Shown piece after piece: positions 147-17,164 of a stretch of DNA of 17,422 nucleotides. Location: contig JAITIG010000228.1 of NCBI GenBank assembly GCA_031279575.1, positions 1 through 17,422 of the forward strand, written 5' to 3'. This stretch comes from Bifidobacteriaceae bacterium. GTDB taxonomy: Bacteria > Actinomycetota > Actinomycetes > Actinomycetales > WQXJ01. Position numbers and translations under genes: made by a program. The notes below the pieces were generated by a model. The model searched no databases and had not been told where the DNA came from. It saw only the letters and a program-made list of their open reading frames with translations. The first letter of the stretch is position 1, and each line of letters starts with the position of its first letter.

Positions 147-251
147 TTCAGCCGAGAACCGTATCACTCGAACCCCTCACCATCTCACGGCAGAGGTTGG
201 AAAATAGGCCTCCACCAGCTATTTCACAAGGGAGTCCTGATCCGAAACGGA

Positions 252-323
252 GCCGCCTTGGGGAATCGAACCCCAGACCTATTCATTACGAGTGAATCGC
301 TCTGCCGACTGAGCTAAGGCGGC
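252..323 (-). tRNA. tRNA-Thr, anticodon CGT (reads ACG)
   Basis: The reverse complement folds as a complete 72-nt cloverleaf. It has a 7-bp acceptor stem (GCCGCCT pairing with AGGCGGC), a 4-bp D stem with GG in the D loop, and a 5-bp anticodon stem (ATTCA/TGAAT) closing the loop CTCGTAA. The variable loop is short, and the 5-bp T stem (TGGGG/CCCCA) closes a TTCGATT loop. The anticodon CGT specifies threonine codon ACG. CCA is not encoded. A promoter with a 17-bp spacer lies upstream at 361-389, which gives a leader of about 30 nt. No Rho-independent terminator is evident to the left. Confidence 0.96.
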
Positions 324-449: not shown

Positions 450-2234
450 ATGCCGAGAGCAACCCAAACCGAGGCCGCCGCCGAGTGGTGGCGCGACGGC
501 ATCGTCTACCAGGTCTATCCGCGCTCGTTCGCGGACTCCGATGGCGACGGCCTGGGGGACCTGCGCGGCGTCACCTCGCGGGTCGCCTACTTGGCCGAGC
601 TGGGGGTCGATGCCGTCTGGTTGAGCCCGTTCTACCCTTCGGCTTTGGCGGACGGCGGCTACGACGTCGATGACTACCGCGCGGTCGACCCGGCGCTGGG
701 GACGCTGGCGGACTTCGACCAGATGGTGGCGGCGCTGCACGGGGCGGGTATCGGGGTGATTGTCGACATTGTGCCGAACCACACCTCGAACCGGCACGTC
801 TGGTTTCGCCAAGCGCTGGCCTCGCCCAAAGGGTCGCCGGCCCGCGACCGCTACATTTTCCGCGACGGGAGGGGGCCCGGCGCCCAGGAGCCGCCGGCCG
901 ATTGGGTGGCGGCGTTCGGCGGCCCAGCCTGGACGCCCACCGGCGACGGGCAGTTCTACCTGCACCTATTCGCGCCCGAGCAACCGGACCTGAACTGGGA
1001 CAACCCCGAAGTGCGGGCCGATTTCCTCAAAACGCTGCGCTTCTGGGCCGACCGCGGGGTGGACGGCTTCCGCGTCGATGTGGCCCACGCCTTGGCCAAA
1101 GACCTGACCGAGCCCCTGCCAAGCTGGGCCCAGCTGCAGGCGATGACCCAAGGCCCGGACCACCCGCTGTGGGACCGGGACGAGCTGGACCAGATCTACG
1201 CCGAATGGCGGGCGGTGTTCAACGAATACGATCCGCCGCGCTGGGCGGTGGCCGAGGCCTGGGTGGAGGTGCCGCAGCGCCGGGCGCGCTACGCCACCGC
1301 CCAATCCCTGGGCCAGGCGTTCAACTTCGACCTGCTGCAAGCCGATTTCGACGCCGCCGAATTCCGCCTGCGCATCACGCGGTCGCTGGAGGCGGCCCGG
1401 GCCGCCGGGTCGTCTTCCACCTGGGTGCTCTCGAACCACGATGTCATCCGCCACGCCACCCGCCACGCCCTGCCGCCGGCCGGCCCGCCCGGTCCGGACG
1501 CCCGCAACCGGGCCTGGTTGGTGGCCCGCCGGGCGGGCCAGGCGCCGCCCGCCGATCAGGCCCTGGGGCTGCGGCGGGCGCGCTGCGCCACCCAGGTGAT
1601 CCTGGCGCTGCCGGGCAGCGCCTACCTTTACCAAGGCGAGGAGTTGGGCTTGCCGGAGGTGGTCGACTTGGCCGACCTGCCCGATGGCGAACGGCAGGAC
1701 CCGACCTTTTTCCGTTCCGCCGGCTTCGACATTGGGCGCGACGGCGCCCGGGTGCCGCTGCCTTGGACCGAGGGCGGGCCGTCCTTCGGGTTCAGCCCCG
1801 GGGCCGGGCCCGCCCACATGGCGCAGCCGCGCTGGTTTGGCGCCTTCTCGGTCGAGGCCGAGCTGAAGCAGCCGGACTCGACGCTGCGCTTCTACCGCCA
1901 GGCGCTGGGCCTGCGCCGCGCCCTGCTGGCGGACCTGCCCCCGGTTGCCGCCGCCCCGCCGGGGCCCGGCCCGGTCGAGGCTGGCGACTCGGCGCCGGCC
2001 GCGCTGGCGGGTTTGGTCTGGCTGGACGCGCCCGCGGGCGCGCTGCGGTTCGCCCGCGGCGGCTGGCAGTGCGTGGCGAACTTCACCGCCGCCCCGTTTG
2101 CCCTGCCGGCCGGCGATTTGCTGCTGACCAGCGCCCCGCTCGAAGACGGCCGCCTAGGCCCGGCAACCTGCGCCTGGCTGCGTCCCCCGCCCGATGCCGC
2201 CCGCCCGCCTTACCCCTCCCGCAGGGCCTCATAG
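450..2234 (+). CDS. GH13 alpha-glucosidase (probably subfamily 30 type)
   Basis: A 594-residue cytoplasmic glycoside hydrolase, expected to release glucose from the non-reducing ends of short alpha-glucosides by a retaining mechanism. The (beta/alpha)8 barrel starts at once (WWRDGIVYQVYPRSF, 13-27), followed by the Asp/Gly-rich metal-binding loop DSDGDGLGD (29-37). The classical GH13 motifs are present: DIVPNH (106-111), GFRVD with nucleophile Asp210, VAEAW with acid/base Glu269, and SNHD with transition-state stabiliser Asp331. YQGEELGLPE (394-403) is typical of alpha-glucosidases and oligo-1,6-glucosidases. A C-terminal beta domain fills the last 100 or so residues. The overall pattern recalls actinobacterial GH13_30 enzymes, from memory. 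The start is supported by a GAAAGGGA Shine-Dalgarno-like stretch 6 nt upstream. There is no signal peptide and no sugar transporter or regulator beside it. Exact substrate preference (maltose, isomaltose or sucrose type) cannot be read from the sequence. Confidence 0.93.
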   Translation: MPRATQTEAAAEWWRDGIVYQVYPRSFADSDGDGLGDLRGVTSRVAYLAELGVDAVWLSPFYPSALADGGYDVDDYRAVDPALGTLADFDQMVAALHGAGIGVIVDIVPNHTSNRHVWFRQALASPKGSPARDRYIFRDGRGPGAQEPPADWVAAFGGPAWTPTGDGQFYLHLFAPEQPDLNWDNPEVRADFLKTLRFWADRGVDGFRVDVAHALAKDLTEPLPSWAQLQAMTQGPDHPLWDRDELDQIYAEWRAVFNEYDPPRWAVAEAWVEVPQRRARYATAQSLGQAFNFDLLQADFDAAEFRLRITRSLEAARAAGSSSTWVLSNHDVIRHATRHALPPAGPPGPDARNRAWLVARRAGQAPPADQALGLRRARCATQVILALPGSAYLYQGEELGLPEVVDLADLPDGERQDPTFFRSAGFDIGRDGARVPLPWTEGGPSFGFSPGAGPAHMAQPRWFGAFSVEAELKQPDSTLRFYRQALGLRRALLADLPPVAAAPPGPGPVEAGDSAPAALAGLVWLDAPAGALRFARGGWQCVANFTAAPFALPAGDLLLTSAPLEDGRLGPATCAWLRPPPDAARPPYPSRRAS

Positions 2235-4714
2235 ACGTCGGCCGTCTCAATTCTGACCAGCGCGTCCATCAGGTCTTTGACTTCGACGACGCCAGATTGG
2301 CGGGCGTCGGCCGCCTCGACTGCCTGGCGCACAACTGTGCGCACCTGGCCTGACAACGGCAGGTCGCCTTGCAACGGGTCCTGTTTTGCGTAAACCCACA
2401 TCCGGGTCTGGATCCGCTGGAGCAGCGTACGGGGATTTTTGCCCATCGCCTCGACCACGGCCAGCGCAGCCTCGTCGCCGGTCTCGAGGACACCGATCAG
2501 CAGATGCCCGGAGGACATGATGCCTGCCAGCCGGCCGGCGCGGTCAGCATCTCGCCACACTTGCTGGGCAGTTGGCGAGAGCATCTGCGGCGCGCGCCGC
2601 AGCGCGCTGAGCTCGGCGTTGATCCTGGCGAACCGATCCTGGAGCTCGGCGTCGCCGCCGGGCGCTAGCTCCAAGGCGCGATCAAGGTATTGCGGCACGC
2701 TGGCCAGCCGTCCCAGTTCAAGCATTTGGTACGCCAACCACCCCAGTGCCCAGGCGGCGCCGCCGCTGTCACCAGACTTGGCGAATATGTCCGCAGATCG
2801 CTGCCCATGGTGTTGCCAGCCGGTTTCACCCAGGTCAAGCAACGCGTGCGCCAGGAGGCCGTGGGCTCGGCCTTGCAATTGCGGGTCGCCCAAATGGTCG
2901 GCGTGCTCCAAGGCCGCCTCAGCCAACTCCCTAGAGCGGTCGGAGTCATCGACGTCGGCGGCGAGGTCGCAACGAGCCTCAGCTTGGTGGCGGCGGTTCT
3001 GCTCGGCGTCAGCCGCGGCAATTCGCTTTTCAAGCGCCGACAGACGCTCTGCCTGGTCGCCCCTGGCGCCGTGCTGGTCTGCGATCAGCTCGTAAAGATC
3101 GAACGCGACCGCTTGGCTGCGTCTTGCCTCGCTCGGCTGCACCCAAACCCACTCCATCGGCTCAATCAGAGAGACAAGTTGCTCCATCGCCGGCAACGCC
3201 TCATCCAGTCGCTCCGCGTCGGCGGCGGCCGCGAGATACATGCACATCACATGGGCCACAGCCGCGCCATCCGCCGCCGGGTCCGCTTGGAGTTCGGCCA
3301 GCAGGGCGGCGTATCCGTCCATCGCCTCATCGTTTTGGTCGCGCGAGTAGGCCAGAACAAGCCTCCATGATCGCCGCACCACGCGGCGCACGGCGGGCGG
3401 GTTGCGGGTTGGCCTGGGCGTGCGGGCGGGCAGTGGTGGCGGCTCTGCCGGCACCGCCTCGTCGGCTGGGTCGGGATTCTCACTTGGGGTGCGTTCGGTC
3501 CTAACCCACCCCCAGGTCAACGCGGCGAAATAAGCCACCCAGTCACGTCCGGGCGCCACCAGCCAGGTGATGGCGCCATCGGGCATGACGCGCAAACCGA
3601 CCACGCACCTGGTAGTCAGTTCGCCGGCTTTGTCCCGCTCGTCTTTGGCCACCTCGAGCGCGTCGAGCAGGCGCTCGACGCGACTGGCGGCTTGGACCGC
3701 TTTGAGGGGCGGAACCAGGAAGGTGCATTTTGGCAGCAAGCCCCACTCCTTGAGGTGCGCGATCTCCCAAGCCAAAGCGTCAGTTGCCCCCACTGTCAGG
3801 ATGATGCTGCCGGAACGCTCGGCGGTCAACCGGATTGCCTCGCGCCAGCGGGTCTCATCAAAATACCCGCGCACCGCGCCGGGTTTGGGCAGACGCTCGC
3901 CTGGTCGCCCAATTGTGACCATCGAGCCTTGCCCTCTACCCAGCGCGGACAGATAGGACAGGAATTCCTCGAATGAGATCCTTGGCCACAGCAGCGAGCG
4001 CAATCCTGAATCGGTGACTGGCGCGTAGATCGACATGTCGTCATCGGCGAACGACCGCAGGTACAGGGTTGTCTCCGGGCCGGCGTACAACTCGAACTCC
4101 GGCGACGCGCGCCTTTGGGCCAGCCTCGCCCCCAAGCGGATCATCCAATAGCAGACCCATAGCAAAGCAAGCACCGCGGCAGCATCGATCACCCGGCTGA
4201 TCAAGCCCGCGGGCGCGCCGAGCCTTGGGCCGAGCACTGGTCCGGCCAGGCCCAGCCACATCGCCCCCCAAGCCACCGCGCCGGCCGCGATTCGCGTTCC
4301 CCAGGAGATCGCCTTCTGGGGCGCCGTCTGGTCTGGCTGGAGCGGCAGCACGCCCATGGCCTGCAAGAACAGTTGCTCAATTGGCGTCTGGAACGCCACC
4401 ATCGCCGCAGGCAAAATGGCGCCCAGCCAAGTTGGCGCCGGGGGTATGGCGGCGATCCCGGCCCCAACCAACGTGACCAGCCCAATCGCCGCCGGGTAGC
4501 CGAGTTCGACGCGCAGCCGGAAATGGCCAAAGAGCTCGGCAATGGAGAGATCCGCGCCCTTGGTGCCGGCTTCCTCCATCTCTTCGAGGGTTTCGACATA
4601 GGCGAGGGCTCCGAACTCGGTGGAGAAGAAGCGGTGTTCCAGGTTCCCGCGGAATGTCGCGTACAGGGCGAGCCGAATCACCAAGAGTATGGCCAGGGCG
4701 GCGAGCAATGTCAT
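2210..4714 (-). CDS. Membrane protein with TIR-like/Rossmann, TPR-like and ClpN-type domains (operon gene E)
   Basis: An 834-residue protein, not assigned to a named family. Residues 2-18 form a signal-anchor helix. Further hydrophobic helices lie at about 75-90, 95-110, 138-160 and 174-195. A soluble alpha/beta domain follows (about 215-340) with LYLRSF (217-222), IGRPGERLP (268-276) and ALAWEI (313-318). Its strand, Gly-loop and WE pattern resembles a TIR-like Rossmannoid domain known to me from actinobacterial membrane proteins. A Pro-rich linker (411-440) leads to helical TPR-like segments (about 450-700). Residues about 710-825 look like a Clp_N (ClpA/B/C R-domain) repeat: SPTAQQVWRDAD, then HLLIGVLETGDEAA, then LPLSGQVRTVVRQAVEAA. 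No AAA+ domain follows, so it may act as an adaptor or sensor. The open frame extends 86 codons further upstream, but that part overlaps the previous gene, so I chose the Met before the hydrophobic helix. AGGA lies 11 nt upstream of it. The gene ends inside the convergent GH13 gene. Confidence 0.8.
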   Translation of the reverse strand: MTLLAALAILLVIRLALYATFRGNLEHRFFSTEFGALAYVETLEEMEEAGTKGADLSIAELFGHFRLRVELGYPAAIGLVTLVGAGIAAIPPAPTWLGAILPAAMVAFQTPIEQLFLQAMGVLPLQPDQTAPQKAISWGTRIAAGAVAWGAMWLGLAGPVLGPRLGAPAGLISRVIDAAAVLALLWVCYWMIRLGARLAQRRASPEFELYAGPETTLYLRSFADDDMSIYAPVTDSGLRSLLWPRISFEEFLSYLSALGRGQGSMVTIGRPGERLPKPGAVRGYFDETRWREAIRLTAERSGSIILTVGATDALAWEIAHLKEWGLLPKCTFLVPPLKAVQAASRVERLLDALEVAKDERDKAGELTTRCVVGLRVMPDGAITWLVAPGRDWVAYFAALTWGWVRTERTPSENPDPADEAVPAEPPPLPARTPRPTRNPPAVRRVVRRSWRLVLAYSRDQNDEAMDGYAALLAELQADPAADGAAVAHVMCMYLAAAADAERLDEALPAMEQLVSLIEPMEWVWVQPSEARRSQAVAFDLYELIADQHGARGDQAERLSALEKRIAAADAEQNRRHQAEARCDLAADVDDSDRSRELAEAALEHADHLGDPQLQGRAHGLLAHALLDLGETGWQHHGQRSADIFAKSGDSGGAAWALGWLAYQMLELGRLASVPQYLDRALELAPGGDAELQDRFARINAELSALRRAPQMLSPTAQQVWRDADRAGRLAGIMSSGHLLIGVLETGDEAALAVVEAMGKNPRTLLQRIQTRMWVYAKQDPLQGDLPLSGQVRTVVRQAVEAADARQSGVVEVKDLMDALVRIETADVYEALREG

Positions 4715-4718
4715 GTCG

Positions 4719-4745
4719 TCACGTGTCCTGGGGGCTGGGATGCAT
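4719..4745 (-). other. Possible 8-codon leader ORF before gene E
   Basis: In the 76-bp gap between genes D and E, an AGGAG motif stands 7 nt before an ATG that opens an 8-codon reading frame (MHPSPQDT) ending in TGA. The stop lies 4 nt before the chosen start of gene E, whose own Shine-Dalgarno is weaker and more distant. This could be a translated leader that delivers ribosomes to gene E by stop-start coupling, or it could be chance. Confidence 0.25.
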
Positions 4746-4790
4746 CGGTTGACTCCTGGGTTGGGACCGGTCGGGTGCGGCGGGCGGGGT

Positions 4791-7700
4791 TTAGAGCGGG
4801 GGGATGTGGCGGAAGGGGGTGTCTCGGGGCTGGGTGCGGTCGGTCGACATCGGGTAGCGGGCCAGGAAGCGGGCCAGGCCGCGGCCGTACTCGTTGTCCT
4901 GGCGCAGGCGTGCCTCGCGGTAGTCATCCGCCCAGGCGCGGTGGCCCTGCAGGTACATGAATTGGATCGCAACCCAGCTGGCCATGCCCTCGTAAATCTC
5001 CCCTCTTTCGGCCTCGGTCAGCTTGCCGACCCAGGCCTTCGGGAAATTGGCGAACTGCCAGATGTGGGTCAACTCGTGGGTGATCGTGGAGATAGCCGAG
5101 ATCCGCGGGGTGCCTGTCTCCACCAGCAGCTGGTAGCCGTCGCGGCCGCCGATGGCGAGGCCAACGGCTCGCGTGTCTTGGTCCGGCGTGGGGTGGAAAA
5201 CAAACCGGCCGCTCTGCTGAAGGCGGCTGATCTCTTCGGCGTTGGTCACCCGGACTTTGACCGGGACGGTGAACCGGATGCCGAACAGCCCCTCCACCTG
5301 GTGGCGCACTTGGTTGAACACCTGGCGGAACTCATCCACCGTGCGGATGGCTGTGGCGGCGCATTTGTCGCAGCGCTCGCGGCCGTCTTTGAGCGTGTCG
5401 TACTCGCCAATCATGCGCTGGCCGCAGAAGTCGCAGTAGTGCTGCGACGGGTCCCGCTCGCTCCTGGGCACGTAACCGCCGCCGACGCGCGCCTGTTGCA
5501 GCGGGTTGTGGCCGTAACCCAGACCCGACAGGTATTCGACGGCGCCCGTCAAGTCAAGCGACGGGTCGACCTCGGCGCCGCCAAACCGCAGGTAGGAACT
5601 GCCCGCGGCTTTGGTGGCCTCGTCCTCGCCGCCCACATCGAACGGCCCTGGCCCGTCCTCGCCGGCGCCCGCCTCAGCCCGCGGGCCCGCCGCCTTGGCG
5701 GCGGTTGGCAACGGGCCGTCCGGCCGGCCGCTGCCGCCGGCTCTCGGCTCAAAGGCCTGCGCCGCGCCACCCCCGGGCACGATGCCGTCCTCGCCGGGAG
5801 GCGCGCCCGCGCCCTCGGCGGCGGCATCGGCGCCGGCGGGCCCGGCACTACCGGCGGACCCGGCTGCGGCGCCGGCGGGCCCGGCACTACCGGCGGGCCC
5901 GGCAGCGCCGGCGGACCCGGCATCGGCGCCGGCGGGCCCGGCACTACCGGCGGACCCGGCGGACCCGGCGGGGGTATCCCCGGGGGGATCGCCGGCCCCG
6001 GCCGGGATGGGGTCTGAGGCGCCGGGGGCGGCATCGTCGGGGTGGTCGGGCGCGGCGGGCGGGGGAGGGGCGCCGGCCCAGTTGAGGTACTCCAGGATGA
6101 TGCCGAAGAACCGGCCCAGGTTGCGCTCCACCGAGACCATCAAACCCAGGTCGATCTCGCTGTCCTCCAGAATGTAGATCGAATCGGGCTCGAACTCTCC
6201 GGTCAGCTCGGGCTGGAACTGCCGCAGCCGGCTTGGGTCCGGGTCCGCCTCGCCCTCAGCCGCGTCGGGGGCGGCGCCCTCGCCGCGGGTCTCGCCCTGC
6301 GCCGGCGCGGGCTCGGGCGGGACGGCGACCGCCATCAAATACATCCACGAGTCTGGGTAAACGCTGCGGAAAACCTCATCTAGAAGCACAGCGATGGTGA
6401 AGCGGACCCCCGCGCTGGCCCCGGGCAGGGCGACCCGCAGCACCGCCCGGTTGCGGTAGCGCCTGGTCGGGATGCCCTCGTACACCACCGGCCGCGCCCG
6501 CTCCAAATCGTTGTAGGCCAGCAGTTCCAAATAGCCCCCAGTCGCCACCTCAAGGGTGGCCAGCAGGCGCGTCAGGCGCAGTTGGCCCACGCCGCGGTCG
6601 GCGCCCAGCGCGGCATCGGGCAGGCAGTTGGACAAATGGACGCGGCGCAGCTGCCGGTAGGTGCGGCGCTCGTCAATGTGGTCGGCGGCGCGCCGCAGCA
6701 CCACGCCGTGGTCGGGGGTGATAGAGGACACCTCGTAGTACTTGCCGGCGTAGGTGACAAACTGGCCGGGCAGCACCCGCTGGTAAACGTGGCCCAACAA
6801 GCTGGCGCCGACAAAGTCTGTGCCGCCCTGCTCGTTCTCGGCCAAGTAGTAGGCGTTGGTCAAGCGCTGGGCGTAACGGGCCACCTCGGTTTGCTGGTCA
6901 ATGTAAAGGTAGGACTTGGTCTCGCCCTCAATGCTGCCCTCGACCGGCTCCTGGCGGACCAGCAAGCGGGCGTCCTGGACATCGCAGTGCTTGGCGATCA
7001 ACGCCTCGACCTGCTGGCCCACATCACCAGCGCAGGGGACGCCGCCAACTTCCAAGGCCGCCCGCGCCTCGTCCGCGCTGATCTCGGTCTCGAACATTTG
7101 CAACACCAGGCGCAAGGTGATGTTCCGCTCGGTGCGGGCGTAATCGGCCGCGATCGTCGGGATCGCCTTCGGGTCGACCTCGAACAGCTCCGAGTTGGCC
7201 ACCATGAAATCGCGCAACAGGTAGGCGTCGCAGATGACGTGCGCAAACTCTTGGTCGGTGGCGCGCGCGCCAAACACCCGCGCCAACTCGAACAAGTTGC
7301 GGAACTCGTCCTCGACCACCAGGAAAGCCTCCGGGCGCACCGGGTAAGACCACAGGGCCGGCTGGACTTGGAAGGCGCGCCCGAGGGCTTCCTGCGAGAT
7401 GGGCAGCCGGGCTTGCTCGCAGATTTCGCGGTAATACTGCGACACGACCCATTTCATGTCCACCACGGGGAAACGCTCGTCTGAGATCCAGGTGAAGTTG
7501 TCCACGCCGAAGCGCCGCGCCACCGTGAAAATCTCCGGCCCCACCCCCAGGTAGCGTGAAATGTTGCGCAGAATCCGCGGGTGCAGGTACGGTCCCGGCG
7601 CCTCCCAGTACATGGTGGTGACCTCGCCGGTGGGCGGCAGCGAGGCGAACACCTCGGTGATAGAGGTCCTAAAAGCGTGCGACAGCGAGTCGACCAGCCC

Positions 7701-8972
7701 GTCGCAGTTGCGGTCAACCGCCGCCACGGTGACCCCGGCCGGGCTGAGCTTCGATTGCAGCACGCCCAAGCCGATCTGCCCGGTGGCCAAGATGCGGGAC
7801 GGTTCGATCAGAACCACCAGGCCGACTTGGGCCAAGAACTCGGCTTGCTTTTCCAGCAGCCGCAGGTTGTGCAGGTCGCGGAAGCGCAGCAGCCCCACAT
7901 CGACAGGCTTGTCCTCCTGGTCCAACAGGCGCGCCCGCCACAGGTCCGGCACGCCGGTGAACCGGTCCAGAGCTTGGCCCAGCCAGGCTTCGATATCCTC
8001 CGCCGCGGTGTCCCGCCCAATCACCACCAGGCATTTCTGGTGCCGCGCCAGCCGGTCTGCCACCGGCAGCACCAGATAGTCGGCGAGGTCGCGGTAGAAC
8101 GGGTTGGCGATCAGTTGGCTGCGCCCGCCCAGCAGCTCGAGCGTGCTTTGGACAAAGCTCGGGTCCACCGCCACGCCGCGCTCCAGCAGGCCGATGAAGT
8201 ATCGCACCACCGCCTGCTCGCCTGCCGTGCCGCGCTGGCGCATGCGTCGCAGCATGCCCAAGGCCGATGGGGTGGCCGGCGGGTCGATCATCGACGAATC
8301 GTGCAGAATCCGGTCCCCGAACAAGTTGTTGTAGGCCTCGCGCAGGGATAGGTAGTTGACCTGGACGCGGCCCTCCGGCTCGTCGTCATCGTCCTGGCCC
8401 AGGAGCGAGGCGCGGAAAGAACTCCGGGTGTGCCCGGACAAGTAGCCGGCCAAGGCGTCTAGGAAAAGCACCCCGAGGGCGGGGCTTGCCCCGATGGCCC
8501 AGGCGGGCGAGCCGGGCCAGCGGTCGGCCAAGGCCACGACGACGCCGCCCACCGCCACCGCGGCGTAGAGGAAACCCTTCAGGTAGGCCCCGGCGCGGCC
8601 GAATTCGCGTCGCAGCAGCCAGCGGCCGTAATCCTGGTCAAGGTAGTAAAAACGCGACCCCCGAGCCCGCAGCACGGCCGGCCACAGCCACCGGCAAACT
8701 AGCAGAAAAACCACTTTGAGCAGCGCAAACACCAGCAGTATGAGCAGATTGGCGGCCAGTGCCGGGCCCACCAGGGGCGCCTCGGGCACCCAGTCTTGCC
8801 GCATCAGGGCGGCGCTGGCGCTATCGGCGAACAGCCCCAAACCCAAGCCGGCCGCCAGCGTCAGCGGCACCATGGGCGCCTGATAGGCGCGGCTCGCCCG
8901 GCCCAGGTTGATCAACGTGCAGAGCAGGCCCACCAAAGCGAAGACCAGCCAGGTGGCTGCGGCGGCGATCAT
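4791..8972 (-). CDS. Multi-pass membrane protein with degenerate helicase-like core and DA1-like zinc-ribbon metallopeptidase (operon gene D)
   Basis: A 1393-residue protein. Hydrophobic helices occur at about 4-22, 34-50, 70-97, 128-150 and 158-178. The region 290-965 resembles a worn SF2 helicase of the MrfA/Hrq1 kind. PGQFVTYAGKYYEV with GVVLRRAADH (735-765) and SIYILEDSEIDLGL (931-944) recall their C-terminal parts, but no Walker A GxGKT or DExH motif is visible. A Gly/Ala/Pro/Ser-rich linker (about 966-1170) separates it from the C-terminus. There, Cys1180, Cys1183, Cys1201 and Cys1204 (CxxC-x17-CxxC, with KDGRERCDKC) form a LIM-like zinc ribbon. HELTH (1299-1303) is a zincin zinc site, with Glu1300 as catalytic base and Glu1328 (YEGMASW) as the probable third ligand. 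The ribbon-to-protease layout matches plant DA1 peptidases. The start overlaps gene C's stop (ATGA) and has a GGGAG Shine-Dalgarno 5 nt upstream. The peptidase call is firm; the helicase ancestry is inference. Confidence 0.88.
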   Translation of the reverse strand: MIAAAATWLVFALVGLLCTLINLGRASRAYQAPMVPLTLAAGLGLGLFADSASAALMRQDWVPEAPLVGPALAANLLILLVFALLKVVFLLVCRWLWPAVLRARGSRFYYLDQDYGRWLLRREFGRAGAYLKGFLYAAVAVGGVVVALADRWPGSPAWAIGASPALGVLFLDALAGYLSGHTRSSFRASLLGQDDDDEPEGRVQVNYLSLREAYNNLFGDRILHDSSMIDPPATPSALGMLRRMRQRGTAGEQAVVRYFIGLLERGVAVDPSFVQSTLELLGGRSQLIANPFYRDLADYLVLPVADRLARHQKCLVVIGRDTAAEDIEAWLGQALDRFTGVPDLWRARLLDQEDKPVDVGLLRFRDLHNLRLLEKQAEFLAQVGLVVLIEPSRILATGQIGLGVLQSKLSPAGVTVAAVDRNCDGLVDSLSHAFRTSITEVFASLPPTGEVTTMYWEAPGPYLHPRILRNISRYLGVGPEIFTVARRFGVDNFTWISDERFPVVDMKWVVSQYYREICEQARLPISQEALGRAFQVQPALWSYPVRPEAFLVVEDEFRNLFELARVFGARATDQEFAHVICDAYLLRDFMVANSELFEVDPKAIPTIAADYARTERNITLRLVLQMFETEISADEARAALEVGGVPCAGDVGQQVEALIAKHCDVQDARLLVRQEPVEGSIEGETKSYLYIDQQTEVARYAQRLTNAYYLAENEQGGTDFVGASLLGHVYQRVLPGQFVTYAGKYYEVSSITPDHGVVLRRAADHIDERRTYRQLRRVHLSNCLPDAALGADRGVGQLRLTRLLATLEVATGGYLELLAYNDLERARPVVYEGIPTRRYRNRAVLRVALPGASAGVRFTIAVLLDEVFRSVYPDSWMYLMAVAVPPEPAPAQGETRGEGAAPDAAEGEADPDPSRLRQFQPELTGEFEPDSIYILEDSEIDLGLMVSVERNLGRFFGIILEYLNWAGAPPPPAAPDHPDDAAPGASDPIPAGAGDPPGDTPAGSAGSAGSAGPAGADAGSAGAAGPAGSAGPAGAAAGSAGSAGPAGADAAAEGAGAPPGEDGIVPGGGAAQAFEPRAGGSGRPDGPLPTAAKAAGPRAEAGAGEDGPGPFDVGGEDEATKAAGSSYLRFGGAEVDPSLDLTGAVEYLSGLGYGHNPLQQARVGGGYVPRSERDPSQHYCDFCGQRMIGEYDTLKDGRERCDKCAATAIRTVDEFRQVFNQVRHQVEGLFGIRFTVPVKVRVTNAEEISRLQQSGRFVFHPTPDQDTRAVGLAIGGRDGYQLLVETGTPRISAISTITHELTHIWQFANFPKAWVGKLTEAERGEIYEGMASWVAIQFMYLQGHRAWADDYREARLRQDNEYGRGLARFLARYPMSTDRTQPRDTPFRHIPPL
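5828..5970. repeat. GC-rich imperfect tandem repeats encoding the Gly/Ala/Pro/Ser linker of gene D
   Basis: A near-30-bp unit beginning cggcgccggcgggcccggca recurs at 5828, 5867 and 5924 (offsets 39 and 57 bp, both multiples of three), with shorter partial copies between and after. On the minus strand it encodes runs of GSAGPAG-type residues (about 1000-1050 of the protein). Because all offsets are multiples of three, copy-number change would shorten or lengthen the linker without a frameshift. Confidence 0.75.
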
Positions 8973-11224: not shown

Positions 11225-11239
11225 GGCTGAGCCAAATGG

Positions 11240-14200
11240 TCAGGCGCTGGCGGGCGGTGTGCCCGGCCGGGGGCCCGAAGCGCGGCGCGGCGCCCCGCTT
11301 CCGCTGCCCGATGCCGCCGCCCCGGTCCCAGCCGCCCCCGCCCCGGCCGCTCCAGGCGCCCGGGGGCCAGCCGCCCTGGCGGCGGGCGCGGCCGGGGCGG
11401 TTGGCGCGGCGCCCCTCGGGGCGGGGCTGGCGGGGCTGGTTGGGCTGGCGGGCTTGGTGGGGCTGGTTGGGCTGGTTGGGCTGGCCGGCGGGGCCTCGCC
11501 CAAGCGGTCGAACTGGTCCGCGACCGCCACCGCCGCCACCCCCAGGCCCATCTCCCGCAACCGGGCCACAATCGCCCGGCCCAGGTCCCGTTCGACCTCG
11601 GGCAGCTCGCCCCGGTCCATCGCCCTGGCGTAATCCCAATCCGAGTCCGGCTGGTTGCGGTTGGCGCGGTAGACCGCAAACTGCTCGGCCGCGAAGGCGC
11701 ACAAATCGCCCTCCACCGAGGCGGGCGGGATCACCTCTTGGGCGTAGCCGGCGATCGCCCCCCACAGGTCCGCGGCCAAGGCCGCCTCCAAGCCCAAATC
11801 CCGCATGAAGGCGTCCCTCGGGCTGGTCAAACGCACCAAAATCACCAAATCCAGCAAGCTCAGCCCGCAAACGCCGAAGCTCTCGAACTCAGGCAGCCGC
11901 AGCCCCCGCAACCGCTTGGCCAGCAGGCTGTCGGCGAAAGACGGCAGCGTCAGGCGGCGGTCGGCATCGTCCTGGCGCAGCTGGCCGCGCAGCTGGGCCT
12001 GGATGGCGGCCGTGATCTGGTGGTCCGAGGTCAAGCCCTCGATCACCTCGTGCAGGCGGTCGCAAACGGTCCCGTTGGTGGGCATGAGCTGGGCCGAGCG
12101 GTCCACGTCCAGCTTGGCGCCAAGGACATAGCCTCTGAGCTCCTCGCCGCCGGGGCCGGCCCCGGGGATGGTCTCATACTTCACATAGTCCATCAGCAAG
12201 CCGTGCAGGAAGGCCTCATTCACCTCCCGCTCGCGTTCGCGCTGGTAATCCGGGTCAAGATCCGGCAAGTGGGAGCTCAAATGCCAGCGCTTGTCGATGT
12301 GCGGGGTGACATAGGTGGCCTCGGCGGTGACCGGGCCGAGCTTGTTGACCAACTCGTAGTAGGCGTCGAAGTAGGAGCCGGCCTCGTGCTCAACGGTGGG
12401 CCGCTCGGTGGCGGGGGCGAACTTCGGCAGGTCCCTGGCCCGCAGGCCGTAGATCGCGCGGTAGAAAATGATCCTTTGCAGGCCAATGCTCTCATGCGGT
12501 TTGCCGCCGAACGTCTTCAACTCGGTTTCGACAAACTTGGCCCGCTCCAAATCGGTCTCATCGACCAGCCGCGGGTCATAGGTGCAGGCGTCTTTGACAA
12601 TCGGCTCCTCGCCGCGCGGCGCGCTGATGAAGGGGCTGGCCAAAGTCTTGGCGTCATCCACGATCTGCTTGACCAGCGCCTGCATTTCAGCGTGGTCAAA
12701 CTTCTGCTCCTCGATCTCGATCTCCTTCTGCAACGCCGAGATGATGTCGAGGTCAATAGTCGAGCCGTACTGGGCGTGAACCTGCCGCTCGAAGTAGCCC
12801 AAAATGCTCTCATTGAACACCTGGCTGAAATAGCTTTCGTTGCCGCCCCGCTTCTCCACCTCCACATAGGCTTTCACCCGGGTGTAGATGTCGCTCGCCA
12901 ACTGGGAGTCGATCTTGAAAGCGGAGCCGGCGAAGGTCGCCTCCTCGGCCAGCTGGGCGAGGCACTGCGGGGAGGCGCAGACGTACCGCACGGCCTTGCC
13001 CCGGGTGTCCTCGTAGCGGCTGAAAATGGCGGCGCGCGTCTGCTGGGCTTTCTTCAGCTCGCCCCCCAACGCCTTGAAGAAAGTCTCAAAAGCGCTCGAC
13101 AAAGCATCGACCCGCTTCATCGCCTCGTCCAGGACGGCCACGTAAACCACCTGCTTGCGCTGGGTGTCAACCCTCTCTTTGAAGCTCTTGAACCGGCCCG
13201 CCCGCCCCGCCAAGTTCTTCTCGCGGCGCGGCATCTCCGCTATCGCGCCCGGATCGACCTCAACCACATCGGGGGTTTTCTTGATGTCGAAGGTGGCGGC
13301 GGCGAAGGTCTCAAAGAACGCCTTGTTCCTCTGGATCTCTTCTCTCACGCGCCGTTTCTCCTGCTGCAGCAGAGCGGCCGCCTGGTAGAGGAAATAACGA
13401 ATGGAACACGGGTGCAGGTATTCGTTGGAGTCGTTGTGCATATACGTCTCCATGCGGTGGACCGCCTTGGTGGCCGCATCGCTTGCCTCATCGCCGTGGA
13501 AGGCGGTGAAAGCCAGCGAAATAGCCAAATCGGCGGTCATCTGATGGGACGCCTCGGCGTACTTCTTGAGCGCCGCCCAGGCGGGCACAAAGTCATCCGC
13601 GTCCTTGTTCTCGGTCAGCCCGTTCAACTGCTGGTTGACAGATTGCTCCAGGGCGTTGAGCGGCGAGTCCGGGGGGATTCTGACGGCATCGACCACAAAC
13701 TCGAGCAACCCCTCGACCCAGGACTTCCAAGTGCTGGCGCCGGCGTTCTCGAAGGTCCCCGACTCGTCGTAGCGCTTGGTGGCGCCGACAACCTGCCTGA
13801 TGAAGGGATGCTCGTCCGTCTGCGCCCACTGGGTGGCGAACTCGATGTAGTCCTTGGCCGGCGAGGACTCAACAGCCGAGGTCCCCGCCGTCTCGTTTTG
13901 CAGGCGGGTGCGTTTGACTTGGGCGATGTGCGCGGCATCGAGCGCCAGCCAATGCTCGCCGATGGCGTGGGTCAGCCACCCCAGCGCGATGTACCGGCGC
14001 ACATCCTCGAACGGGTAGATCAGCATCGACGAGCCCGCCCCCGCGTAGCGGTTGCGGCCCTGGGTGCGGATGATGTCGCGGATGGTGTTGTCCTCGCTGG
14101 ACGAGCTGCGCTCGTTCATCGGCCCGATCGACTGGGCGTAAATGCAGGTCGCGGCGTGGCTCTTATAGGAATCCAAGGTCAGCAGACTGCGGCTGCCGGT

Positions 14201-14983
14201 GCTTTGGGCGTCAAACAGGAAGCAGAAGTCATACGGCATGACGTCGTAGTCTTCCGGGGCGCCGCCATCGCGCGAGGAGAACTCCAGCCTCAAGGCCTCG
14301 GCGTAGCGGCCGGGCAAATTGCCCTCGCCGCGCATCATGAAGGCGTCGAGCTCGCGCAAGGTGGCGTACGAGTTGGCGCGCAAGTTGCGCCGCTCCGCGT
14401 CGCCCTTGACATCGGAGTAGAAAACCTCCGGCAGGAGGAAGAAGCCCCGGGTGATGGTCTTGATCCCAGGCAGCTCCCGCTTGATGTAGCGGTTGATATA
14501 CAACGCCATCGGCAGCAAAATGCCAGAGCCGGTGCCGCCGCACAGCGAACTGACCACCACCACGCGCAACGGCTGCTGCAAACGCTCCGGCGACAGGCGG
14601 TACAACTCGCGGATGGCGTTGTGCAACGGCTCCAGTTTGCCGGTGCGGTGCGCCGTGTTCAGGGCCAGGCGCGAAACCGCCCTGATCTGCCCGGCGCCCT
14701 CCGTGATCACCTTGCGGTTCAAGGTGCCGTTGACCGGGAACCAGGTGTCGCGGGCGTGGGTGTCGATGTCGAGGTACTCGCCCACAGTCAGACTGCTGGT
14801 CGAAGTCTGGATCAAGTGGATGCGCGGGCTCTCCCGCTGGATCCGCTGCATCTCGTTGGCGTCGGTGTCGAACGCCACAAACTCGATGCTCTCGCCCTCG
14901 TGGCCGGCGGCCATCTTTGCGACACGGGCGATCACATCAGACCCGGCGCCGCCGAGCCCGACCACCAAGGTTGGTGCTGCCAT
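11240..14983 (-). CDS. Giant tubulin/FtsZ-superfamily GTPase-like protein (operon gene B)
   Basis: A 1247-residue protein, about three times the length of FtsZ. The N-terminus carries the tubulin-fold nucleotide loops in order. These are the T1-like glycine loop LVVGLGGAGSD (6-16), the T2-like FDTDANEM (38-45), the tubulin signature SLCGGTGSG (146-154; FtsZ has GGGTGTG) and the guanine-contact-like LRANSYATLRELDAF (201-215, Asn204). This matches 'tubulin-like' (Tubulin_2 type) proteins from memory. I cannot place the T7 catalytic loop with certainty, so polymer-coupled hydrolysis is unproven. Residues about 530-690 and 790-850 are charged helices compatible with coiled coils. The tail from about 1162 is Ser/Pro/Thr/Ala/Gly-rich and probably disordered. 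The start is fixed by a strong AAAGGAGG site 10 nt upstream, 18 bp after the vWA gene's stop. Expected role: membrane-linked filament or GTP switch. It has no signal peptide and should be cytoplasmic. Confidence 0.9.
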   Translation of the reverse strand: MAAPTLVVGLGGAGSDVIARVAKMAAGHEGESIEFVAFDTDANEMQRIQRESPRIHLIQTSTSSLTVGEYLDIDTHARDTWFPVNGTLNRKVITEGAGQIRAVSRLALNTAHRTGKLEPLHNAIRELYRLSPERLQQPLRVVVVSSLCGGTGSGILLPMALYINRYIKRELPGIKTITRGFFLLPEVFYSDVKGDAERRNLRANSYATLRELDAFMMRGEGNLPGRYAEALRLEFSSRDGGAPEDYDVMPYDFCFLFDAQSTGSRSLLTLDSYKSHAATCIYAQSIGPMNERSSSSEDNTIRDIIRTQGRNRYAGAGSSMLIYPFEDVRRYIALGWLTHAIGEHWLALDAAHIAQVKRTRLQNETAGTSAVESSPAKDYIEFATQWAQTDEHPFIRQVVGATKRYDESGTFENAGASTWKSWVEGLLEFVVDAVRIPPDSPLNALEQSVNQQLNGLTENKDADDFVPAWAALKKYAEASHQMTADLAISLAFTAFHGDEASDAATKAVHRMETYMHNDSNEYLHPCSIRYFLYQAAALLQQEKRRVREEIQRNKAFFETFAAATFDIKKTPDVVEVDPGAIAEMPRREKNLAGRAGRFKSFKERVDTQRKQVVYVAVLDEAMKRVDALSSAFETFFKALGGELKKAQQTRAAIFSRYEDTRGKAVRYVCASPQCLAQLAEEATFAGSAFKIDSQLASDIYTRVKAYVEVEKRGGNESYFSQVFNESILGYFERQVHAQYGSTIDLDIISALQKEIEIEEQKFDHAEMQALVKQIVDDAKTLASPFISAPRGEEPIVKDACTYDPRLVDETDLERAKFVETELKTFGGKPHESIGLQRIIFYRAIYGLRARDLPKFAPATERPTVEHEAGSYFDAYYELVNKLGPVTAEATYVTPHIDKRWHLSSHLPDLDPDYQREREREVNEAFLHGLLMDYVKYETIPGAGPGGEELRGYVLGAKLDVDRSAQLMPTNGTVCDRLHEVIEGLTSDHQITAAIQAQLRGQLRQDDADRRLTLPSFADSLLAKRLRGLRLPEFESFGVCGLSLLDLVILVRLTSPRDAFMRDLGLEAALAADLWGAIAGYAQEVIPPASVEGDLCAFAAEQFAVYRANRNQPDSDWDYARAMDRGELPEVERDLGRAIVARLREMGLGVAAVAVADQFDRLGEAPPASPTSPTSPTKPASPTSPASPAPRGAAPTAPAAPAARAAGPRAPGAAGAGAAGTGAAASGSGSGAPRRASGPRPGTPPASA
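11423..11485. repeat. Seven 9-bp tandem repeats encoding the SPT/SPA tail of the tubulin-like protein
   Basis: Seven consecutive 9-bp units of the form (g/t)ggctggt or close variants run from 11423 to 11485. On the minus strand they encode alternating Ser-Pro-Thr and Ser-Pro-Ala triplets in the C-terminal tail of gene B. Point differences between units are few, and length change would stay in frame. Confidence 0.8.
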
Positions 14984-14993
14984 GGGTGTCGCG

Positions 14994-15001
14994 CCTCCTT
15001 T
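14994..15001 (-). promoter_or_regulatory. Strong Shine-Dalgarno site for the tubulin-like gene
   Basis: AAAGGAGG on the minus strand lies directly after the TAG stop of the vWA gene and 10 nt before the ATG of gene B. It is the closest match to the anti-Shine-Dalgarno in the operon, which suggests that gene B is the most highly translated member. It also fixes the start at 14983. Confidence 0.8.
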
Positions 15002-17164
15002 CTAGTTTCCTGAAATAGTCGGATCGCAGGTGTAGGTGGAGCCGTCGTCGCGAGTCCAAATCACGGTGGTCGACTCCGGCATGTCTTGCTTGCGGGCGCC
15101 CTTCTTGATATACCCGTCTTCCCCCACCATCCCAAACTGGTGGGTCCGCCGGCCGGCGAAGACACTCGCATTGGTGAGGCACATGTAGCCGCCGGCCTTC
15201 GCTTTCAACGCCAGGTGGGTGATGGGGTAATTGCCCTTCGGCGGGAAGTGCAAATCGCCCCGCTCGGCCGCATAAGGCGTCCACCGGCTCCACGCCCTGA
15301 CCTTGAACCGGGCCTGCGGGTCGGCCGGCCGCGAACCCACCCCGCTGCGGCCAGCCACCACCTGCGGGTGCCGCTTGACCTGCTTGAACCGGCACTTGAA
15401 CGGCCAATAGCCGGCCGCGACCAGCAACGCCAACAGGCCCAGCAGCAGCTTCCACCAGTTGGCTTTGAACCAGGCGCACCAGCGCTTGGTCCAGGGGATA
15501 TCGTCCTCGATCACGATGACGCCCTCCGCCTGGCCCGCCATCGGCCCCGCCGGGGGGTTGTCCAGCGTGCCCTCAACTGTGATCGGCTCATCGGAGCGCG
15601 GATTGTTCAGCTCGTCGCCATCGGGCAGCGGGCAAATGCGGAACTCCGGCGCCTGGTCGCCCTGGACCACCGTCCACTTCGAGTTGGGCGAGGCGGCCGT
15701 CAGCACCGTCTTGTCCCAATGGTCCTTCGCCAACGGCAAGCCGTCAATGGTGACCCTCGCATCGAGGCAGCCGGCCTGCTCAAAATTGCTGGAGGTGACG
15801 CCATCGGGCAGCTCGAGGGTGATCTCAAGCGGTTTGCTGGCCACCCCGACCTTCAGATTGAGGATGTCCGGCAAGGTGTTGTACATCAAATAGGTGCCCT
15901 GGATGTCAATCGACGCCTCGCCCTCAGCCAATACCACCTGGCATTGCGCGCCGCACTGGTCGGTCAGAGTCTCGCCGTTGTTGGTCACCGCGCCCTCGTA
16001 GACGACAGACCCGAGCAGGTCGGAGGTGACCCACTGGCCGGCCGCGTCCACCAGCCCCACCGTCACCGTGTACTGGCCGGCGGGGACCGCCTCGCCATCC
16101 TCCAGCACGCCCTGCAGCGGGATCCAGCCGCCGTCGGCGTCCTGCAAGCGGACGCCGATCGCCACATCCGGCGAATAGTAGACGCTGACCTGGCTGGCGC
16201 CGGTCGCATCAATGGTGTAATCGCCTTTCGGCAGCTGGCGGAACTCGGCGATCTGGCCTTGCAGGTTCGGGTCGGTCAAAACCCCCGCCCGCTCCGAATA
16301 GCGCACCACTGCGGGGGTTGCCACCGGGTTGAAAGTCGCCCCCGCCCCAAAGACGGCGTTGATTTTGACGTCCTTGCCTTGGGCGAACACCAGCAGCTGC
16401 TTCATGTCGACGTCGAAGCTGATCTTGTTCTCGGCGCTGACGGCGAGTTGGACGCGCTGAAACACCTGGTTGCAGATCTGGGTCAAAGCGTTGATGACCT
16501 GGCCGGAATCCGCCACCTTCTTGGTGTAGAACCCGATCTCCGGGTCCGCCGGCAGGTCTGGGGCGCCGTCGCCGATGCCGAGGAAGAAGATCTGCTCGCC
16601 CGCCCTGGCCCAGGTCTTGAAGTTCCCCACCAACTCGTCTTGGGGCACAAACACCTCTTGGCCGGTGCCGTAGCGGGCCAACTGGCCGTCCGTCATCACC
16701 ACCAGCCAGCGGGTGGCGTTGGCGCCGGCCGCCGCCAGGTGGGCTTGAGCCGCCTCGACGGCCTCGTACGGGGTGTTCAGATCTCGCGGGGTCAGGCCGT
16801 CGTGGATGCGCTGGACGCGCTCCTCGGCGGGCATGTCGCCGGTCAGTGTCAAGTAGACGCCGCCGCGGTTTGACTGGCCCTCGAAGTCGCTCATCAGGAA
16901 GATGTTCAGGGTGTCGCGCTCCCCGAGCATGGCCGCCATGACCTCCATGCCGTACTTCGCCCGCGCCCAGGAGTTGATCAGGTTGCCGCTCTCATCGCGG
17001 ATCATCGAGCCGGAGTCGTCATACACCAGGTCAATGACGCGCGATGGCGGCTCGGCCGCCTGCGCGCCCGGCCCCGCCCCCAGCGGCGCCAGCGTGGCCA
17101 GGCCGCAGACCGCCAGTCCCAGGCACAGCGCGGCGGCGACAGCCGGTTTCGGCGCATTTCGCAT
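15002..17164 (-). CDS. Membrane-anchored vWA-domain protein (operon gene A)
   Basis: A 720-residue secreted-then-anchored protein. Residues 1-36 are a Sec signal peptide ending in AQA. The von Willebrand A domain spans about 41-230. Its metal-ion-dependent adhesion site is visible as DDSGS (Asp49, Ser51, Ser53), NTPYEA (Thr131) and VVMTDG (Asp159), so it should bind a divalent metal and a protein partner. Beta-rich, Ig-like stretches follow (about 240-550). A single transmembrane helix (570-586, WWKLLLGLLALLVAAGY) is followed by a basic stretch, so the 130-residue C-terminal tail should be cytoplasmic. That topology would let the vWA domain sense or grip something outside while the tail meets the tubulin-like protein. 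The start has GAGGA 8 nt upstream. It is the first gene of the block and lies 18 bp before gene B. There is no MoxR ATPase beside it, unlike many vWA operons. Confidence 0.88.
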   Translation of the reverse strand: MRNAPKPAVAAALCLGLAVCGLATLAPLGAGPGAQAAEPPSRVIDLVYDDSGSMIRDESGNLINSWARAKYGMEVMAAMLGERDTLNIFLMSDFEGQSNRGGVYLTLTGDMPAEERVQRIHDGLTPRDLNTPYEAVEAAQAHLAAAGANATRWLVVMTDGQLARYGTGQEVFVPQDELVGNFKTWARAGEQIFFLGIGDGAPDLPADPEIGFYTKKVADSGQVINALTQICNQVFQRVQLAVSAENKISFDVDMKQLLVFAQGKDVKINAVFGAGATFNPVATPAVVRYSERAGVLTDPNLQGQIAEFRQLPKGDYTIDATGASQVSVYYSPDVAIGVRLQDADGGWIPLQGVLEDGEAVPAGQYTVTVGLVDAAGQWVTSDLLGSVVYEGAVTNNGETLTDQCGAQCQVVLAEGEASIDIQGTYLMYNTLPDILNLKVGVASKPLEITLELPDGVTSSNFEQAGCLDARVTIDGLPLAKDHWDKTVLTAASPNSKWTVVQGDQAPEFRICPLPDGDELNNPRSDEPITVEGTLDNPPAGPMAGQAEGVIVIEDDIPWTKRWCAWFKANWWKLLLGLLALLVAAGYWPFKCRFKQVKRHPQVVAGRSGVGSRPADPQARFKVRAWSRWTPYAAERGDLHFPPKGNYPITHLALKAKAGGYMCLTNASVFAGRRTHQFGMVGEDGYIKKGARKQDMPESTTVIWTRDDGSTYTCDPTISGN

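What the first reader, a model, noticed from the sequence alone, without database searches (positions are those of the whole stretch)
2210..17164. Five-gene tubulin/vWA/DA1-peptidase membrane operon
Five large same-strand genes with gaps of 18, 15, -4 and 76 bp encode a vWA membrane protein, a giant tubulin-like protein, a two-helix membrane protein, a membrane helicase-like/peptidase fusion and a TIR-like/TPR/ClpN membrane protein. Tubulin-like plus vWA gene sets were predicted as a membrane-remodelling system in comparative genomics (Makarova and Koonin, about 2010, from memory). The addition of a DA1-like protease and a ClpN/TIR-like partner would make this a distinct, possibly protease-executed version: filament, external sensor, membrane scaffold, peptidase and adaptor. 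A conflict or defence role is possible but unproven.
Basis: partly seen in the sequence, partly recalled or inferred. Interest (0 to 1): 0.87.

Follow-up and report, generated by a model that had tools for sequence, protein, structure and literature searches.

The report
Tubulin-vWA membrane machine with pseudo-helicase
Four neighbouring genes that travel together in several bacterial phyla encode a membrane machine built on a tubulin-like protein, and in one branch of gut bacteria it sits beside a secretion-type motor and toxins, which suggests, but does not prove, that it is a protein-export or delivery device.

Summary
Genes, order and gaps are as reported. The conserved unit is four genes, A-B-C-D (vWA membrane protein, Tubulin_2/FtsZl1 GTPase, coiled-coil membrane protein, membrane pseudo-helicase with zinc peptidase); E is not part of it (0 of 80 loci). 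In 80 loci found through D, tblastn finds C in 77, B in 72, A in 65, always in this order where called. In 344 sampled genomes of one order, the 6 with D are exactly the 6 with a close B. The peptidase is fused to D in 60 loci and is a separate adjacent frame in 14. D's core is modelled as an SF2-helicase fold nearest MrfA (DUF1998), without Walker A or DExx. The family is the FtsZl1/vWA system predicted by Makarova and Koonin (2010); this D-containing type is a new variant. In one clade (17 of 80 loci) a soluble FtsK/EssC-like ATPase follows D directly, with WXG-like proteins in 10 of the 11 loci where it is complete, and toxins in some; 8 of 10 such genomes lack an EssC over cut-off. I read A-D as the membrane chassis of an export or delivery machine; for the window, which has no such ATPase, this is extrapolation.

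The parts
15002..17164 (-). Gene A: exported/anchored vWA protein, MIDAS DDSGS at aa 49, hydrophobic helix at aa 573-591, C-terminal tail
   Evidence: relatives at 65 of 80 loci by tblastn; V47, D49, S51, S53 invariant in 23 rows
11240..14983 (-). Gene B: Tubulin_2 / FtsZl1 GTPase with GGTGSG at aa 149 and a long C-terminal region
   Evidence: PF13809 5.6e-57; 827 relatives at E <= 1e-3 among 7,996 candidates scored
8969..11224 (-). Gene C: N-terminal alpha/beta domain (aa 1-277), then long helices with a hydrophobic hairpin (aa 279-593)
   Evidence: model pLDDT 81.7; relatives at 77 of 80 loci by tblastn
4791..8972 (-). Gene D: three N-terminal hydrophobic helices, SF2-helicase-fold core without Walker A or DExx, disordered linker, zinc-binding CxxC pair and HELTH metallopeptidase
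   Evidence: model of aa 195-1393, pLDDT 80.5, pTM 0.81; MrfA match; motifs; fused/split survey
4794..5450 (-). Peptidase part of D (about aa 1175-1393): CDFC...CDKC and HELTH
   Evidence: a separate adjacent frame in 14 of 80 loci
2210..4714 (-). Gene E: membrane protein with a conserved LYLRSF-DD region; probably a lineage-specific neighbour, not part of the core
   Evidence: 0 of 80 loci (room checked); 5 relatives besides itself among 7,993 candidates scored; alignment

Best explanation
A-B-C-D is one conserved membrane machine, a distinct branch of the FtsZl1/vWA systems. Shown by sequence or model: the four genes travel together in fixed order; B has a tubulin-type GTPase domain; A carries a vWA domain behind a signal-like helix and before a later hydrophobic helix; C is a membrane coiled-coil protein; D is a membrane protein with a motif-less SF2 motor fold coupled to a zinc peptidase. 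Inferred: B assembles on the membrane through C and D, A grips or senses something outside, and the assembly forms or opens a path for protein clients; D's helicase fold serves as a scaffold (SecA, from memory, has a related but active motor fold), and the peptidase licenses or trims clients. In one clade a soluble FtsK/EssC-like ATPase (F) feeds WXG-like proteins and toxins to this chassis. In the window the motor and clients are unknown; E may be a local adaptor.
For: Tight spacing: AB 56 pairs, BC 63, CD 72, median gaps 27, 27, -8; no called core gene out of order or strand. The 6 D genomes are the 6 close-B genomes among 344 (chance 4.5e-13, 2.6e-11 without the seed genome, relatedness ignored). 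Peptidase fused or split but kept beside D. F directly after D in 17 of 17 F loci, gap -13 to 38 bp; WXG-like proteins at 10 of 17 F loci (10 of the 11 with complete F) and 0 of 63 others, with profiles built from F loci. F: FtsK_SpoIIIE 8.4e-17; best NCBIfam T7SS EccCa 2.5e-21, far under its cut-off; no hydrophobic helix by simple scan. Toxins over Pfam cut-off: ADPrib_exo_Tox 1.3e-25; Gln_amidase 7.4e-14 with an EspC-like N-terminus. EssC over cut-off in 2 of 10 F genomes, EssB/YukC in 0 of 10, so the usual membrane partner seems missing. All 17 F rows lie in a clade of 20 (support 100). A different FtsZl1/vWA operon also has an F-like ATPase beside it (one case).
Against: The window and 63 of 80 loci lack F, and outside F loci no full-length F was found in the genomes searched (50 of 80 loci given), so the core must also work without F. 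F-like ATPases with small WXG-like proteins also occur without A-D (L100, L102, L104). The WXG-like proteins are below Pfam cut-offs. 20 regions of other FtsZl1 types had no A, C, D or F profile hit. Absence of EssB says little about T7SS types c-j, which lack it by the paper read, and their ATPases may fall under the EssC cut-off. All 10 F genomes have sub-cut-off EssC-profile matches (F itself, FtsK-type), and 8 of 14 control genomes ring too. One, G045, has a 1518-aa FtsK-type protein that scores best as DNA translocase FtsK. Most genomes are MAGs of unstated completeness. No secretion was measured.
Confidence: 0.4

Rival explanations
1. Membrane-remodelling or vesicle machine, as Makarova and Koonin proposed for FtsZl1/vWA operons: B filaments bend or tether membrane through C and D, A binds the outside, and F with its toxins is a passenger of one clade.
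For: FtsZl1 membership; membrane helices in A, C and D; C's helical part resembles long coiled coils, with BAR and Drp1 rows low in the list; the core exists without F in 63 of 80 loci.
Against: Does not explain why F sits directly after D in all 17 F loci or why F genomes mostly lack EssC over cut-off; C's fold matches are at a level the tool calls common for long helices.
Confidence: 0.22
2. Defence or cell-suicide system: the membrane core senses an attack, B filaments amplify, and the peptidase executes; TIR, TPR and channel genes nearby are effectors.
For: Patchy spread, 6 of 344 genomes; peptidase in 74 of 77 loci that can be judged; TIR proteins near A-D confirmed at L009, L016, L024; a family with a weak Castor/Pollux channel hit near 11 loci.
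Against: No PADLOC hit at E up to 1; the TIR neighbours seen are few and not at a fixed place; no D match in 72,556 plasmid records, though defence genes need not be on plasmids; the peptidase target is unknown.
Confidence: 0.2
3. Envelope housekeeping: a cell-wall or surface-organising complex, with the transglutaminase-like lipoprotein of some clades as surface client.
For: Transglutaminase-like lipoprotein family at 19 of 80 loci (Transglut_core 7.4e-11 in L024).
Against: Presence in only 6 of 344 genomes of an order argues against housekeeping.
Confidence: 0.1

Closest known systems
FtsZl1 (Tubulin_2, PF13809) / vWA predicted membrane-remodelling systems, Makarova and Koonin 2010 (PMC2875224; parts 1-2 of 5 read)
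   Same: Tubulin_2 protein with a long C-terminal region beside a vWA protein, other membrane proteins around it
   Different: The parts read name GTPases, kinases and OmpA proteins as partners, not a pseudo-helicase/zinc peptidase. Their associated families B1-B9 are in a supplement I could not open, so C or D may be listed there.
Second FtsZl1 operon type in the same order (vWA - Tubulin_2 - ~610 aa - ~210 aa - ~470 aa zinc-motif protein)
   Same: vWA plus Tubulin_2
   Different: No A-, C-, D- or F-profile hit at E 1e-4 in 20 regions from 18 of 19 genomes, some cut by contig ends
Type VII secretion systems T7SSa-j (Garrett et al. 2024, PMC11217815; abstract and results parts 1-2 of 3 read)
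   Same: F clade only: FtsK-family ATPase, small WXG-like proteins, toxins with a WXG-like N-terminus
   Different: F shows no hydrophobic helix and is below EccC/EssC cut-offs; the words tubulin and FtsZ do not occur in that paper's main text; the window itself has none of these genes
MrfA / DUF1998 SF2 helicases
   Different: D is a membrane protein, lacks Walker A and DExx, and is joined to a peptidase

Membership tests
FtsZl1 / Tubulin_2 (PF13809) | Profile match over curated cut-off | tested here: met
   B: 194 bits against 27, residues 6-341
FtsZl1 / Tubulin_2 (PF13809) | GTP-binding GGGTG(S/T)G-type loop | tested here: met
   GGTGSG at aa 149; G149-G154 invariant in 22 rows
FtsZl1/vWA operon | Neighbouring vWA protein with intact MIDAS | tested here: met
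   A, DDSGS; the vWA profile itself is below cut-off, 15 of 27 bits
FtsZl1/vWA operon | Filament formation, membrane remodelling | not testable with these tools
   Needs experiment
Type VII secretion system (window) | EccC/EssC-type ATPase and WXG100 protein | tested here: inconclusive
   None of the five genes matches such a family, but the window's genome is not held
Type VII secretion system (F clade) | EccC/EssC profile over cut-off, membrane-bound ATPase | tested here: not met
   F 76 bits against 509; no hydrophobic helix by simple scan
Type VII secretion system (F clade) | WXG100-family small protein | tested here: inconclusive
   L025 18837-19136: WXG100 21.3 of 27.3 bits, EspC 22.8 of 23.5 bits
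SF2 helicase, DUF1998/MrfA type | Two RecA-like domains with MrfA-like extension | tested here: met
   Predicted model, match over 593 residues
SF2 helicase, DUF1998/MrfA type | Walker A and DExx motor motifs | tested here: not met
   PFY (D 291-293) and PS (391-392) invariant in 57 rows at the places expected from the model's strands; GxxxxGK[ST] anywhere in 1 of 57 rows
DA1 peptidases | DA1-like profile PF12315 | tested here: not met
   10.4 bits at the D peptidase of G022 and 10.8 bits at that of G037 (placed by position), cut-off 25; 12 genomes searched
BSP / DUF6055 / DUF6782 metallopeptidases | Profile over cut-off | tested here: not met
   Window: BSP 21.8 of 23.8, DUF6055 16.8 of 27 bits. 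Other D rows: DUF6055 at E <= 0.01 in 15 of 33 (bits of those rows not shown; some carry it as a precomputed label)
TIR / ClpN (gene E) | Pfam TIR and Clp_N match | tested here: inconclusive
   No TIR; Clp_N 0.66 in P0207, none in P0206; ClpB 0.02 in NCBIfam; PF02861 as precomputed label

The most novel reading that the evidence does not exclude
A-D is the chassis of an undescribed, tubulin-based protein-export machine; one clade couples it to a soluble EssC-like ATPase to deliver WXG-like toxins, i.e. a tubulin-driven relative or analogue of type VII secretion, with the dead SF2 motor and its zinc peptidase as the membrane gate.
Probability: 0.31. Interest if true: 0.92.

Novelty: new variant of a known kind. 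Interest (0 to 1): 0.72.

Why it matters
What FtsZl1 tubulin relatives do has been open since their description in 2010. Here one branch is tied, by strict gene order, to a pseudo-helicase/peptidase and, in one clade, to a secretion-type ATPase, WXG-like proteins and toxins in genomes that mostly lack a recognisable EssC. That gives a direct test (secretome with and without the tubulin gene) and, if positive, a cytoskeletal GTPase as part of a protein-export machine.
Full report
Observation. E most likely starts at the ATG at 4714; the longer frame in the ORF list begins inside D. A tRNA-Thr and a GH13 gene lie at the low end of the window. No whole genome is held for the window. The D tree puts the window beside a group of six actinobacterial rows and Tissierella L077 (support 93, long branch), and the best E relative (37%) is named Bifidobacteriaceae, so an actinobacterial host is likely but not shown.

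The unit. One genome per species was scanned with a D alignment: 149 places encode a relative and the best 80 were kept. By tblastn the 80 loci hold D 80, C 77, B 72, A 65; by called genes 78, 74, 64, 64 (some frames were masked by longer antisense frames). No called core gene is out of order or on the other strand. Gaps between -30 and 60 bp: 46 of 56 AB, 53 of 63 BC, 62 of 72 CD. Of the misses, 11 of 15 for A, 6 of 8 for B and 2 of 3 for C have the first core hit within 410 bp of the locus end. The rest are L028 (A and B absent with about 6.9 kb upstream), L077 (A absent; B called as only 476 aa), L033 (A; 1.3 kb upstream) and L027 (A, B, C; 1.9 kb upstream). Hosts by record title include Bacillota, Actinomycetota, Spirochaetota, Myxococcota and a Pseudomonadota MAG. 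Independently, several B and D hits in the protein search share the same longest-contig length, and locus tags IJF20_01040/01050 and IJA55_00845/00835 leave room for one gene between them.

Test from the other side. In 344 genomes drawn from the order of Butyrivibrio genome G022, D was found in 6 at E 1e-10. B at E 1e-10 was found in 25: the same 6 with E of 1.4e-84 or lower, and 19 with E of 8e-18 or higher, none of which has D. I set the line between close and distant B after seeing this gap; up to two candidates per genome were scored. In 4 of the 6, B and D share a contig; in 2 they are on different contigs. The chance that two sets of six coincide is 4.5e-13, or 2.6e-11 without G022, ignoring relatedness. 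Twenty regions around distant Tubulin_2 genes (18 of the 19 genomes; some cut by contig ends) have no hit to the A, C, D or F profiles at E 1e-4; seven show a complete other operon, vWA - Tubulin_2 - about 610 aa - about 210 aa - about 470 aa with zinc-type motif. D therefore marks one branch of FtsZl1 systems.

E. None of the 80 loci has an E relative, although 74 have at least 600 bp and 69 at least 2,500 bp after the last core gene. Five proteins other than E match it among 7,993 candidates scored. They share a membrane part and an LYLRSF-DD region; no TIR profile matches. E is a local neighbour, possibly an adaptor.

C. The model (pLDDT 81.7) shows an alpha/beta domain at 1-277, then long helices with a hydrophobic hairpin. 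Most rows of both fold searches are helical bundles or coiled coils for residues 278-595. The N-terminal domain was not modelled alone, so its fold is open.

A clade with a motor and toxins. In 17 of 80 loci the gene directly after D is F (gap -13 to 38 bp), about 1160-1200 aa in the 11 complete cases, with no hydrophobic helix by simple scan, Walker A GASxSGKST and Walker B VIFVILDE. Family hits: FtsK_SpoIIIE 8.4e-17, T7SS EccCa 2.5e-21 and EssC 1.5e-18, both far below cut-off. L035, L038 and L045 keep only an N-terminal part of about 190-220 aa. Two kinds of WXG-like proteins were found at 9 and 8 of the 17 F loci, 10 loci in all, and at 0 of the 63 others; the profiles were built from F loci, so other kinds could be missed. 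Some toxins carry the same N-terminal domain: L025 20036-21019 has Gln_amidase (7.4e-14); L025 19238-19810 is an ADP-ribosyltransferase (1.3e-25); L037 16317-16835 has Gln_amidase (2.3e-8). ParB-like ends in L037 and L065 are my reading of the sequence, not a profile hit. In the D tree of 61 of 79 rows all 17 F rows fall in a group of 20 (support 100; midpoint root); L031, L034 and L042 are its rows without F.

Is F the export motor? Among 50 genomes (50 of the 80 loci given), full-length F is found in 10, always beside A-D; the best other match is partial (1.5e-29, G016). In those 10, EssC passes its cut-off in 2 (G019, G047) and EssB/YukC is found in none. Against this: all 10 have sub-cut-off EssC-profile matches, which include F itself and FtsK-type proteins; 8 of 14 control genomes ring as well; T7SS types c-j lack EssB by the paper and their ATPases might score low. 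A 1518-aa protein of G045 scores best as FtsK DNA translocase. Butyrivibrio sp. FCS014 (G022) and Lachnoclostridium sp. An131 (G045) are named strains; most others are MAGs. In 299 genomes of the family of G022 (two candidates per genome scored) 10 have an F-like match. Of the 19 loci fetched have D beside F. Six wider regions of F-like genes without D show no A-C-D; one (G243, L101) lies beside a vWA gene and Tubulin_2 genes of the other type, and L100, L102 and L104 have F-like genes with small WXG-like proteins and no tubulin found (the WXG-like label there is my reading). So F is an optional partner, seen with two kinds of FtsZl1 system and also without them.

Reading. A soluble motor with export-type substrates and no recognised membrane partner, placed without exception next to D, makes A-D the best candidate for the membrane part in that clade. 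A-D are wider than F, so the core should be a general chassis whose clients differ: 19 of 80 loci have a transglutaminase-like lipoprotein family, and TIR or channel-like proteins occur at some. For the window the client is unknown. Membrane remodelling and defence remain open.

Known or new. Parts 1-2 (of 5) of Makarova and Koonin 2010 describe FtsZl1/vWA operons and unspecified associated families. Garrett et al. 2024 (abstract, results parts 1-2 of 3) describe T7SSc-j, which contain a membrane-bound ATPase; tubulin and FtsZ occur nowhere in the main text. PMC9871819 passages mention Tubulin_2 as a divergent group. My searches list no paper whose title or abstract joins these parts; most listed papers were not opened, and subscription papers and preprints are not held.

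Noticed in passing
window 450-2234 (+): GH13 alpha-amylase family gene (PF00128, 5.6e-92) converging on E; the two genes overlap tail to tail by 25 bp
   Followed up: no
window 249-323 (-): tRNA-Thr (CGT)
   Followed up: no
window 5833-5971, 9061-9181, 11420-11485: Short-period GC-rich tandem repeats that code for low-complexity stretches in the D linker, the C tail and the B tail; the C tail is absent in the other rows shown of the C alignment
   Followed up: partly
L138, L139, L142, L144, L147, L151, L153: A second FtsZl1 operon type: MIDAS vWA, Tubulin_2 (~1120 aa), ~610 aa, ~210 aa, ~470 aa protein with ICPxCCHxF near its start
   Followed up: partly
L101 6952-17021: F-like ATPase beside a vWA gene and two apparently frame-broken Tubulin_2 genes
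   Followed up: partly
L100, L102, L104: F-like soluble FtsK-type ATPases with small WXG-like proteins but no tubulin, C or D found nearby
   Followed up: partly
L028 13029-22085: A 3018-aa gene directly after C-D in a Peptococcaceae MAG locus that lacks A and B
   Followed up: partly
80 loci; examples L024 14558-16675, L037 17957-20131: Membrane family with a weak Castor/Pollux channel hit near 11 of 80 loci
   Followed up: partly
phage record MT836542 6931-9723: A B homologue (41.5%) in an unannotated 9.8 kb faecal 'Bacteriophage sp.' record, perhaps a bacterial contig
   Followed up: no
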